Origin: Sutcliffiella horikoshii
GTDB lineage: Bacteria; Bacillota; Bacilli; Bacillales; Bacillaceae_I
NCBI RefSeq assembly: GCF_002157855.1
Contig: NZ_CP020880.1
Coordinates: 1,116,001 to 1,180,000 of the forward strand
Direction of reading: 5' to 3'
DNA length: 64,000 bases
Below are positions 12,414-52,610 of this stretch, in pieces. The position numbers and the translations under genes are program-made. The notes under the pieces were generated by a model. The model was not told where the DNA came from. It ran no database searches and saw nothing but the letters and a program-made list of their open reading frames with translations. Every line of letters begins with the position of its first letter. The first letter of the stretch is position 1.

Positions 12414-12431
12414 ATAACGATCAGACCCTTC

Positions 12432-12572
12432 TCTCAATACGCTTACGAGGTTAGCTGTCGGGTTAGAGGATGAGAGTCCTCTTCGTATAAGTACGATTCA
12501 CCCCAAGATATGCCGAAATTATCAGGATATCAATATGGTTCCCCCGCTCTGTAAAGATTAAGCAATAGGTTA
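12432..12572 (-). ncRNA. ydaO-yuaA (c-di-AMP) riboswitch
   Basis: Read on the minus strand the leader contains the class landmarks in order: GGGGGAACC (12538-12546), GGGGTGAAT (12496-12504), GACTCTCATCC, and GACAGCTAACCTCGTAAGCG (about 12443-12462). The ends pair loosely through TTGCTTA and TAAGCG. This class binds c-di-AMP and shuts off K+ uptake; the terminator just downstream supports an OFF switch. It is named partly after yuaA, the B. subtilis ktrA. Confidence 0.95.
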
Positions 12573-12595
12573 AAATGTATAGAATGATGATACTT

Positions 12596-13654: not shown

Positions 13655-13815
13655 AAGGTGACTTCATTCACTAAAGGGTTTGTGTAATGGCATCTACCCG
13701 GTTTAACTGATAAAGAATTAACGTTAGTTTTCGTGATTTTCAGCTGTGGATTGGAGCAAATGACGGAGACTCCTGTGGGGGAGTAGCGGCAATGTTGAGA
13801 CCCCGCAGCGAAGGA

Positions 13816-14032
13816 GGCCACTGAAAAACCTAGTAACCTATCTTTTGGATAATTTATAGCTGTTGATTGAAGCAATAGGCGAAGACTCCTACGGGGGAGT
13901 AGCGACAATGTTGAGACCCCGCAGGGCGTAGCCCGAGGAGGCTCAAGATCGCCCCGTGGAAAGCGAAGCCGTTTGCGGAAATCAACAGCGGTGTCTTAAA
14001 AAAATCTAACATCAAAGACTTTTTCAGTGGCC
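13816..14032 (+). mobile_element. 217-bp MITE-like unit inserted in SRE2
   Basis: Terminal inverted repeats GGCCACTGAAAAA (13816-13828) and TTTTTCAGTGGCC (14020-14032) are exact over 13 bp. The interior carries a complete SRE and AT-rich shoulders; there is no open reading frame. A second copy of about 95% identity lies at 52283-52498, also inside an SRE apical loop. No transposase is present in the window, so movement would need help in trans. Confidence 0.7.
13859..13989 (+). repeat. SRE3, structured repeat carried inside the inserted unit
   Basis: Bounded by a perfect 10-bp pair, GCTGTTGATT and AATCAACAGC. Inner stems are ACGGGG/CCCCGT and TTGAG/CTCAA, with apical hairpin GGGCGTAGCCC. Stem TTGAG/CTCAA against GTGAG/CTCAC in minus-type copies is a compensated base-pair change. 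Confidence 0.85.
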
Positions 14033-14132
14033 ACCAGCGAAGCGAGGAGGCTCAAGGTCGCCCCACGCAAAGCGCAGCCATTTGCGGAAAGGAACGGCGG
14101 CGATAAACCAATAACAGAGGTTTTTACTTTTA

Positions 14133-22891: not shown

Positions 22892-24010
<1,119 letters not shown>

Positions 24011-32424: not shown

Positions 32425-32579
32425 CAAACGATCATAGAAAAAGGGAGAAAATGCAGGGGAGGATTCTTAGATAATATACTGAGGTGCATCAGAAATAATC
32501 AAAAGAACCTTGTCCTGCTTTTACCGTGTTCTATGTATCGTTTCATCTTCTCAACTCCCGAAGAAAGAGAAACTAAATC

Positions 32580-32752
32580 GGTAAAGGCAGGTCTCCTGAC
32601 TCGTGCTTCTTCCTATTTTGACCCTTCCCATACAAGAGCCGTTAAGCCTTCATGTACAGTGGTTTCTCAAAATCGTCAGCACTTACAGTTGCGGGTACAG
32701 TTCCGGATTTTCACCGGATTCCCTATTAAGTCTAAAAAAGACACCTTTATCG
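32580..32752 (-). ncRNA. cobalamin (B12) riboswitch controlling nrdAB
   Basis: On the minus strand: AATAGGGAATCCGGTGAAAA, CCGGAACTGTACCCGCAACT, GGCTTAACGG and the B12 box AGTCAGGAGACCTGCC; the ends pair through ATAAAGGTG and CCTGCCTTTAC. This is the standard adenosylcobalamin-class architecture. With the downstream terminator it should switch nrdAB off when B12 is available. Confidence 0.95.
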
Positions 32753-32764
32753 TAAAAAGTTATA

Positions 32765-42062: not shown

Positions 42063-42127
42063 ACCATGGAGAATACCCCTCAATCTTTTTGCACTATTGA
42101 TGCAGTTAAAATAAGAAGGTGGGGATT

Positions 42128-42194
42128 CTCGTAGTCAAACTCTTTACGGTAGTTTGGTAGAAACTTATGGACCATATCTCCAAGATTATACGAG
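42128..42194 (-). ncRNA. purine riboswitch (guanine class) upstream of ade
   Basis: On the minus strand: P1 CTCGTA/TACGAG, TATAATCTTGGAGATATGG, AAGTTTCTACCAAACTACC and GTAAAGAGTTTGACTACGAG. The J3/1 specificity base is C (GACTA), predicting guanine, hypoxanthine or xanthine as ligand, not adenine. Confidence 0.93.
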
Positions 42195-42472
42195 TAGTTC
42201 AATATGAGTATTTTTCCCATTATAGTGGGGTGGAGGAATTTACGTCAAGCTTCTATTTATAGCCGGAAAATTTCGAATTTGGGAAAAGGGTTGGCTTTTG
42301 TTGAAAAAGGGTATGTAATAGTGTTTAAGTTTGAGGAATGGTATTATCAACAAAGAAGAATGGCTTTTACATATTTTAATATGGCCAATCTTTGATTATG
42401 CATGTCACCCTAAAAAAGAGGGGACTGCATTCGAATAACTATTATTAGTTTTGTTGCATATAGGGGGTTCAT
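42195..42472. other. intergenic region between ade riboswitch and PBP gene
   Basis: Contains the expected ade promoter near the riboswitch. A 63-codon open frame (42204-42395) has no ribosome binding site, reads like non-coding AT-rich DNA and is rejected. No repeat or RNA motif seen. Confidence 0.4.
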
Positions 42473-48183: not shown

Positions 48184-48223
48184 AGGTATCAGAAATTGCT
48201 TTCCGAAAACTTTATACGAATCT

Positions 48224-48314
48224 ACCACTAGGGGTGCCTTTATAAGGCTGAGATTGAAGTGTGACTTCAAGACTCTTAGAACCTGATCTGGTTAACACCA
48301 GCGTAGGGAAGTGG
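48224..48314 (+). ncRNA. TPP riboswitch 1 (tenA-ykoEDC)
   Basis: Landmarks in order: CCACTAGGGGTGCC, GGCTGAGATTG, ACTCTTAGAACCTGATCTGG, TTAACACCAGCGTAGGGAAG, TGGGG. P1 closes CCACT with AGTGG. A terminator at 48359 makes it a transcriptional OFF switch. Confidence 0.96.
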
Positions 48315-48358
48315 GGTCGAAACACTATACTTATAATGTTAGCTGTACTAGTGAATTT

Positions 48359-51989: not shown

Positions 51990-52012
51990 GAAGCCATCAA
52001 TTGAATAACTTG

Positions 52013-52105
52013 TAACACTAGGGGAGTCAATAGTGACTGAGATGGAAAGAGTAATTTCCAGACCCTTTGAACCTGATCTAGTTTGTACTAGCGTAGGGAA
52101 GTGGA
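52013..52105 (+). ncRNA. TPP riboswitch 2 (tenI-thiOSGFDE)
   Basis: AACACTAGGGGAGTC, GACTGAGATGG, ACCCTTTGAACCTGATCTAG, TACTAGCGTAGGGAAGTGG: the complete thi-box. A strong terminator follows. Confidence 0.96.
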
Positions 52106-52146
52106 AATGTTCTATCACTGTTGGCTTTACATACCACATATAGATG

Positions 52147-52181
52147 AAAACCCACTCTTTACGTTAAAGAGTGGGTTTTTT
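52147..52181 (+). terminator. terminator of TPP riboswitch 2
   Basis: AAAACCCACTCTTTA and TAAAGAGTGGGTTTT around CGT, then TT: perfect 15-bp stem. Confidence 0.9.
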
Positions 52182-52282
52182 GTATTTTATAATGTTGCAT
52201 TAGAATCCCCTGGTGATTTTAGTGCAAGGTGTGAGACTCCTGAGGGAGATAGCGGTAGGTTGAGACCCAACAGGCAAAGCGA

Positions 52283-52498
52283 GGCCACTGAAAAACCTAG
52301 TAACCTATCTTTTGGATAATTTATAGCTGTTGATTGGAGCAATAGGTTAAGACTCCTACGGGGGAGTAGCGACAATGTTGAGACCCCACAGGGCGTAGCC
52401 CGAGGAGGCTCAAGGTCGCCCCGTGGAAAGCGAAGCCGTTTGCGGAAATTAACAGCGGTGTCTTATAAAATCTAACTTCAAAGACTTTTTCAATGGCC
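52283..52498 (+). mobile_element. 216-bp MITE-like unit inserted in SRE9
   Basis: Second copy of the unit at 13816-14032. Terminal repeats GGCCACTGAAAAA and TTTTTCAATGGCC (one mismatch). Internal SRE and shoulders are nearly identical to the first copy, differing at roughly ten positions. The target loop sequence differs from that of the first copy. Confidence 0.7.
52326..52456 (+). repeat. SRE10, structured repeat inside the second inserted unit
   Basis: Bounded by GCTGTTGATT and AATTAACAGC; stems ACGGGG/CCCCGT and TTGAG/CTCAA, apical GGGCGTAGCCC as in SRE3. Confidence 0.84.
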
Positions 52499-52610
52499 AC
52501 GGCAAAGCCGAGGAGGCTCAAGCACCGCCCCTAGGAAAGCGAACACCTGGAACGGAAATCAACAGGAGTTTGACGGATTTTTAAGATTTTTTAAAAAAGG
52601 GTGAGGATCT

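What the first reader, a model, noticed from the sequence alone, without database searches (positions are those of the whole stretch)
13816..14032. 217-bp MITE-like unit that carries an SRE and is inserted in the apical loop of another SRE
The unit has exact 13-bp terminal inverted repeats (GGCCACTGAAAAA / TTTTTCAGTGGCC), a full SRE inside, and splits SRE2 at its apical loop. CAGCGAAG-GAGG flanks both sides, like a target-site duplication. A second, about 95% identical copy splits SRE9 at the equivalent place with a different duplicated loop sequence (GGCAAAGC-GAGG). Two different duplications argue for two independent insertions at the same structural target. This would be a small element that homes into hairpins of its own repeat family, somewhat like REP/IS200-type systems that recognise hairpins.
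Basis: partly seen in the sequence, partly recalled or inferred. Interest (0 to 1): 0.82.

Follow-up and report, generated by a model that had tools for sequence, protein, structure and literature searches.

The report
Hairpin-axis transposon carrying its own target
A short DNA parasite, apparently a stripped-down relative of a known family of jumping genes, inserts at the tip of hairpin-forming repeats and carries a copy of such a repeat itself, so a new copy brings along a new landing site.

Summary
The unit is a 221-bp MITE (13814-14034) flanked by an exact 8-bp duplication (CAGCGAAG); the second copy is 52281-52500 (GGCAAAGC). Relatives have uninterrupted SREs at both loci. The likely parent is in the same genome: five identical 1,864-bp IS1182-family elements with the same ends and an SRE upstream of the transposase gene, all five inside SREs. 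The MITE looks like an internal deletion of such an IS. In 89 insertions of related ISs, the 8-10 bp duplication mostly straddles the symmetry axis of a hairpin: often a terminator, in some genomes the SRE apex (outside SREs, 54 of 76 within 1 nt; controls 154 of 1,520). So hairpin axes in general are targeted, by a DDE element, not an IS200-like one. Hairpin targeting by IS1182 members is in print (ISCbo5, IS1272). New, as far as my searches show: the axis-centred duplication, a REP-like repeat as target, and an element carrying its own preferred target, once caught in a three-level nest. MITEs share the orientation of the host SRE in 44 of 49 cases; this is unexplained.

The parts
13742..13813 (+). 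left arm of host SRE (copy 1), ending with the 8-bp duplication
   Evidence: SRE profile hit for the joined flanks, 84.6 bits, insertion at about model position 67 of 127; edges by eye
13806..13813 (.). target-site duplication CAGCGAAG, left copy
13814..14034 (+). MITE, 221 bp (GAGGCCACTGAAAAA...TTTTTCAGTGGCCAC)
13814..13828 (+). left terminal inverted repeat (13 bp exact from 13816, plus GA)
13858..13991 (+). SRE carried inside the MITE, counterpart of the SRE in the parent IS leader
   Evidence: edges by eye
14020..14034 (-). right terminal inverted repeat (13 bp exact to 14032, plus AC)
14035..14042 (.). target-site duplication CAGCGAAG, right copy
14035..14099 (+). right arm of host SRE (copy 1)
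   Evidence: edges by eye
52273..52280 (.). target-site duplication GGCAAAGC, left (copy 2)
52281..52500 (+). second MITE copy, 220 bp, 95% identical, carrying an SRE (about 52325-52457, by eye)
52501..52508 (.). target-site duplication GGCAAAGC, right (copy 2)

Best explanation
The unit is a non-autonomous, internally deleted derivative of an IS1182-family DDE insertion sequence. Shown: an IS with the same ends, 1,864 bp, is present in five identical copies; the MITE corresponds to its left end plus the leader SRE plus a right end. Shown: insertions carry an 8-10 bp duplication that in most cases is centred on the symmetry axis of a hairpin, at SRE apexes or at terminators, without a shared stem sequence and without following loop length. 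Inferred: the IS transposase moves the MITE in trans; it recognises the dyad or hairpin shape (perhaps extruded as a cruciform, or single-stranded during replication) and makes a staggered cut about 8-9 bp wide across the axis. Inferred: SREs dominate as targets in this genus because they are hundreds of strong hairpins, and because the IS leader has captured an SRE, each insertion keeps a hairpin in place and adds a new landing site.
For: Five IS copies with 0 mismatches over 1,860 bp, all five inside SREs with perfect 8-9 bp duplications. Transposase above the cut-off of NCBIfam IS1182. Intact SRE apexes are about 0.07% of the genome (242 matches, 0 in the reversed control; taking 12 bp each). 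MITEs: 49 of 68 scored sites in SREs, 45 of 68 at the apex, with 16 different perfect duplications as read in element orientation, about 10 loop sequences after merging reverse complements and length variants by eye. IS outside SREs: in 54 of 76 the best dyad axis lies within 1 nt of the duplication centre, against 154 of 1,520 control positions; A-tract and T-tract both flank 47 of 76 against 29 of 1,520. Hairpin score against other positions in the same locus (up to 751), top 1% / top 5%: ISs 23 / 34 of 44 and MITEs 22 / 41 of 68, second IS set 32 / 38 of 50. Mean score peaks at shift 0 (19.5 against about 4-5.5 at shifts of 4 or more). Re-dealing arms among 32 sites lowers the pairing (7.25 observed, maximum 6.00 in 200 shuffles). 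For strong centred dyads, loops of 3-5 nt and of 8 or more have the same 8-9 bp duplications, plus two of 10 bp. Uninterrupted orthologous SREs. Three-level nest L211.
Against: 22 of 76 non-SRE IS sites have no dyad within 1 nt, and 27 of 68 MITE sites are not in the top 5% by hairpin score. MITEs L203 and L219 have perfect 8-bp duplications but no good hairpin. 9 of 45 apex MITEs have 2 or more mismatches between the two duplications, as expected for old or recombined copies. 4 of 49 MITEs in SREs are not at the apex (L194, L222, L224 near model position 36-41, L183 near 83). A deeper branch (L119, L120, L136) has 10-bp duplications and no centred hairpin; two of these are in an SRE side arm. 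Ends were picked by maximising inverted repeat plus duplication, so the high share of perfect duplications is partly selection (loci without were dropped); the hairpin tests do not share this bias. Sites within one genome are not all independent (G192 copies share a composite flank). Nothing here tells double-stranded palindrome recognition from extruded or single-stranded hairpin recognition, and trans-mobilisation is not shown.
Confidence: 0.85

Rival explanations
1. Nested structures spread as blocks: one MITE entered one SRE, then homologous recombination or gene conversion between SREs copied it into others, which would also explain the shared orientation.
For: 44 of 49 MITEs are co-oriented with the host SRE; 21 of 45 apex MITEs have at least one mismatch between duplications, as can follow recombination; two sets share long flanks (L183/L226, L193/L208).
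Against: 24 of 45 apex MITEs have perfect duplications of 16 kinds, about 10 loop sequences after merging variants; 42 flank clusters among 49 sites, the largest joined largely by short links of 125-200 bp that may be neighbouring SREs; uninterrupted SREs at both window loci in relatives; non-SRE hairpins are hit too.
Confidence: 0.08
2. The transposase reads the conserved SRE apex sequence (GAGACCCC...GAGGAGGCT) and hairpin shape is incidental.
For: In the window genome all five IS copies and most MITEs are in SREs with nearly constant apex flanks.
Against: The same clade, and some MITEs, insert at axes of hairpins with unrelated stems. At 32 sites (28 outside SREs and 4 that the profile later put in SREs) the eight positions next to the duplication carry at most 0.34 bit each, with more only in the outer A and T tracts, while arms pair site by site (axis test of 76 sites).
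Confidence: 0.05
3. Insertion is loose and selection leaves only copies in harmless intergenic hairpins such as terminators.
For: Terminators and SREs are mostly intergenic; 61 of 65 IS leaders and 56 of 65 tails hold terminator-like hairpins of their own (21.7 and 11.3 in base-shuffled sequences), so such insertions may be mild.
Against: Selection would not place the duplication within 1 nt of the dyad axis in most sites or make the score collapse within 3-4 nt.
Confidence: 0.03

Closest known systems
ISCbo5 (IS1182 family), Clostridium botulinum group III, PMC3098183 (passages read)
   Same: IS1182 family; all insertion sites except one are inverted repeats forming a hairpin at gene ends, taken to be transcription stop signals.
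   Different: The passages seen give no duplication length or position, no repeat family as target and no carried target.
IS1272 / TnSha1 (IS1182 family), PMC5678879 and PMC4923244 (passages read)
   Same: IS1182 family; hairpins or inverted repeats are targeted without sequence consensus.
   Different: IS1272 replaces or deletes the stem-loop and makes no duplication; here the arms are kept and the axis region is duplicated, resembling the hypothetical pathway c drawn in PMC5678879.
ISs that target REP sequences (ISPsy8, ISRm22, ISPpu9/10 and others), PMC1525189 (abstract and Results section read)
   Same: All copies in a palindromic repeat at a fixed point; ISPsy8 and ISRm22 at the symmetry axis, ISRm22 with 6-bp direct repeats.
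   Different: No carried copy of the repeat is described in the parts read; here the clade is not limited to one repeat.
MITEs in general (recalled)
   Same: Short, no transposase gene, inverted repeats and duplication, a related IS present.
   Different: Contains a complete copy of its main target repeat.

Membership tests
IS1182 family (parent IS) | IS1182-type DDE transposase | tested here: met
   NF033551 IS1182, 358.9 bits against cut-off 270; Pfam DUF772, DDE_Tnp_1, DDE_Tnp_1_6
IS1182 family (parent IS) | terminal inverted repeats and a target duplication within the family range of 2-60 bp (ISfinder range quoted in PMC7335449, passage) | tested here: met
   inverted-repeat ends, 8-10 bp duplications
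IS1182 family (parent IS) | catalytic activity and transposition | not testable with these tools
   recent movement inferred only from five identical copies
MITE | short, inverted repeats, target duplication, related autonomous IS (definition recalled) | tested here: met
IS1272-type inverted-repeat-replacing transposition | stem-loop removed, no target duplication | tested here: not met
   arms retained; perfect 8-10 bp duplications in 43 of 44 IS sites with ends and 50 of 50 new sites; 5 of 44 relatives' loci and 26 of 80 loci without such ends were dropped, so these shares are upper bounds
IS200/IS605 or REP-associated tyrosine (HUH) systems | HUH transposase, no inverted repeats or duplication (definition recalled) | tested here: not met
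   DDE IS1182 transposase, inverted repeats and duplication
IS110 (bridge RNA) | DEDD transposase (abstract in the listing) | tested here: not met

The most novel reading that the evidence does not exclude
The carried SRE is not a passenger but part of target choice: a transposon lineage repeatedly captures a copy of its main chromosomal target and uses it, by pairing or by recruiting a shared factor, to home to other copies in a fixed orientation. For it: all 13 SRE-bearing elements found among 74 distinct ISs hold the SRE in the leader in one orientation (three are copies of one IS), although its position relative to the leader terminator differs; SRE-bearing MITEs are co-oriented with their targets in 44 of 49; SRE-less ISs show that orientation in only 4 of 9; one MITE landed in the SRE of another MITE.
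Probability: 0.13. Interest if true: 0.82.

Novelty: new variant of a known kind. Interest (0 to 1): 0.56.

Why it matters
It gives a near base-precise rule for how an IS clade (found in Bacillales, and in records labelled Lachnospiraceae and Bacteroidota) picks targets: the axis of a hairpin, with an 8-10 bp duplication, independent of stem sequence. This makes structure-guided DDE transposition testable with simple target plasmids. It also shows a possible self-reinforcing cycle, an element that carries its own landing site, and a route by which long nested palindromes can build up in genomes.

Tried and rejected
Rfam at gathering threshold: no family covers the unit or its SREs in the window. 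PDB by sequence: nothing for the transposase at E up to 1. Literature: ten searches; in their listings and the passages I opened I saw no paper describing an IS1182 element in a REP-like repeat or one carrying its target, but most subscription papers are not in the library. Passages of PMC2267715 name repeat families in other Bacillus species; I could not compare them with the SRE. Passages of PMC3196728 list one IS1182 element (direct repeat of 4 bp in two copies) and say nothing of its targets. IS200-like and IS110-like readings were rejected on transposase family, ends and duplication. 'The duplication equals the loop' was rejected: loops vary from 3 to 21 nt while the duplication stays 8-10 bp. 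A first regex classification of SRE targets was too strict and was replaced by a profile; the arm-pairing and information figures used the first classification. Structure prediction and viral-contig scans were not used.

Dropped rows and choices: one search listed 45 non-own matches, one at a contig edge was not fetched; 44 relatives' loci were examined and 5 were dropped for lack of ends (L127, L128, L135, L138, L145); for L129 and L150 I moved the boundary by one base by hand. One search kept the best 80 of 140 relatives; 26 of 80 loci gave no ends above the threshold; 4 of the other 54 were duplicates of earlier sites. One search left out L280 (SRE target) and L281 (composite or tandem copy), which still contains. 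MITEs: 71 loci requested, 1 at a contig edge, 2 more dropped for poor ends, leaving 68; relatives' MITEs were taken from the top of the list, so they are not a random sample. One search examined 65 of 74 distinct elements. Orthologous loci were read in 6 of 15 relatives for copy 1 and 10 of 15 for copy 2.

Full report
What is there. The window is C1:1116001-1180000 of a 4.30-Mb genome in two contigs. The unit at 13814-14034 is a 221-bp element with 13-bp exact inverted repeats plus two outer bases (GA...AC), flanked by CAGCGAAG on both sides. The second copy (52281-52500) is flanked by GGCAAAGC. Both interrupt an SRE, a palindromic repeat of about 127 bp. The SRE family folds as an imperfect hairpin with compensatory changes at 6 of 22 predicted pairs in 24 copies. 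An exact apex pattern occurs 242 times in the genome and its reversed control 0 times.

The parent. Searching the own genome for the ends gave five pairs 1,860 bp apart. These five copies are identical. The copy L061 encodes a 484-aa transposase, found at 100% in all five, that passes the NCBIfam IS1182 cut-off. With GA...TC ends the element is 1,864 bp. In transposase orientation it reads: left end, SRE at 49-171, terminator-like hairpin, transposase gene, terminator-like hairpin, right end. The MITE has the same kind of left end, leader stretch, SRE and right end, without the gene, so it looks like an internal deletion derivative; its own exact parent sequence was not found. All five IS copies lie in SREs. 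Four are at an intact apex; in the fifth (L061) the left apical arm is shortened, but the duplication is intact (by eye).

Independent insertions and empty sites. At the copy-1 locus (6 of 15 relatives read), G007 and G006 have an intact SRE without the MITE, G010 has only the end of an SRE, and G012, G005 and G013 show none. At the copy-2 locus (10 of 15 read), G008 and G003 have an uninterrupted SRE and G012 a shortened one with an intact apex; G014 and G004 have an SRE in the opposite orientation; G007, G006, G005, G010 and G013 have none.

A genus-wide family. 15 of 16 genus genomes match the MITE query at E up to 1e-30, although many hits are SRE only. Of 68 scored MITEs (the top of that list plus nine in the own genome), 49 are inside an SRE by profile search, and 45 of these lie at the apex, model positions 58-70 of 127. 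Among apex MITEs 24 have perfect duplications, 12 one mismatch and 9 two or more. The perfect ones are of 16 kinds as read in element orientation, about 10 loop sequences after merging reverse complements and length variants by eye. Other MITEs sit in terminator-like or other hairpins (L179, L209, L212, L206, L074). Some have no good hairpin or no matching duplication (L164, L177, L184, L199, L203, L219, L228, L075).

The general rule. Transposase relatives at 52-84% identity came from 21 other genomes among 397 of the order and from the best 80 of 140 public loci, 56-84%, which include Paenibacillus, Lachnospiraceae and Flavobacterium. Ends were found for 39 of 44 loci of the first set and 54 of 80 of the second, 50 of them new. 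Duplications are 8-10 bp: 43 of 44 perfect in the first set with the five own copies, 50 of 50 in the second; since ends were chosen by inverted repeat plus duplication, these shares are partly selected. The hairpin tests are not affected by that choice. Sites outside SREs are often bidirectional terminators: A-tract on the left and T-tract on the right in 47 of 76 against 29 of 1,520 control positions. The best dyad axis is within 1 nt of the duplication centre in 54 of 76 against 154 of 1,520. Hairpin scores are in the top 1% of positions of the same locus for 23 of 44 and 32 of 50 IS sites and for 22 of 68 MITE sites. Shifting the site by 3-4 nt removes most of the signal. In 32 sites the eight positions next to the duplication carry at most 0.34 bit each, yet arms pair with their own partner better than with arms of other sites (four of these 32 were later placed in SREs by the profile). 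Among 53 strong centred dyads, loop lengths run from 3 to 21 nt while the duplication stays 8-10 bp. This suggests that the cut spacing is set by the enzyme and its centre by the dyad. 22 of 76 sites do not fit well, and a deeper branch (L119, L120, L136) behaves differently.

The carried target. All 13 are in the same orientation, antisense to the transposase gene. The SRE is on the left of the leader terminator in some and on the right in others (by eye), and carriers are scattered on the transposase tree, so it was probably captured more than once. In L211 (genome G003) a MITE sits in the SRE of another MITE, which itself sits in a degenerate SRE: three levels, with duplications CAACGAAG (outer) and GGCGTAGC (inner). 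This is 1 of 112 sites checked. The two-level nest in the window is predicted to fold as one extended hairpin in which the MITE ends continue the stem (-70.5 kcal/mol, z -4.1).

Unexplained. MITEs inside SREs are co-oriented with the host SRE in 44 of 49 cases (38 of 42 flank clusters, p 6e-8). The SRE-bearing ISs of G000 and G008 give 5 of 6. SRE-less ISs in SREs show the corresponding orientation in 4 of 9 (L119 and L120 left out), but some of those share flanks, and two more G192 copies with shared flanks are in the other orientation, so the contrast (p 0.03) is weak. Recombination between SREs, replication strand or a role for the carried SRE could each explain it.

Comparison. IS1182 members in terminator hairpins were described for ISCbo5 (PMC3098183, passages). 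IS1272 targets hairpins but deletes the stem-loop without duplication (PMC5678879 and PMC4923244, passages); PMC5678879 draws a hypothetical route in which the loop would be duplicated, which resembles what is seen here. ISs in REP sequences, some at the symmetry axis, are known from PMC1525189 (abstract and Results). So the kind of system is known; the axis-centred duplication, the SRE as target and the carried target are the parts I did not find in print (ten searches, listed under tried and rejected).

Verdict. A new variant of a known kind: a hairpin-axis-targeting IS1182 element and its MITE, which carry a copy of the repeat they mostly land in.

Noticed in passing
window 52010-52610: The second MITE-in-SRE lies between a TPP riboswitch (52010-52116) with a terminator-like hairpin after it and a gene from about 52610 whose start looks like a TenI/ThiE-type protein (by eye; no gene call was run there), so it may lengthen the leader of a thiamin gene.
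   Followed up: no
L247, L249 against L245, L250, L251: At the copy-2 locus the SRE is present, absent or inverted among species of the genus, so SREs themselves seem to move or invert.
   Followed up: partly
L230 and L231 against window 13742-14099: Orthologous SREs have different apex loops (CAGGCTTGCC in G007 and G006, CAGCGAAG in the window) although the arms are alike.
   Followed up: no
L139, L344, L346 (G192): Several IS copies sit in an SRE within a larger repeat of roughly 520-540 bp; in L344 and L346 it has other ends (TTCAACAG...) and 11-12 bp duplications at a hairpin: possibly another SRE-carrying element of the same habit.
   Followed up: partly
IS leaders and tails, e.g. L061, L118, L294: Terminator-like hairpins lie on both sides of the transposase gene (61 of 65 leaders, 56 of 65 tails), so an IS that splits a terminator brings terminators with it.
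   Followed up: partly
L276 element: A Filibacter IS of the clade has a different palindrome-like sequence in its leader where others have an SRE (by eye).
   Followed up: no
window 12426-12574, 23609-23710, 32569-32763, 42112-42213, 48220-48326: Ordinary riboswitches (c-di-AMP, purine twice, cobalamin, a further TPP) found by Rfam.
   Followed up: no
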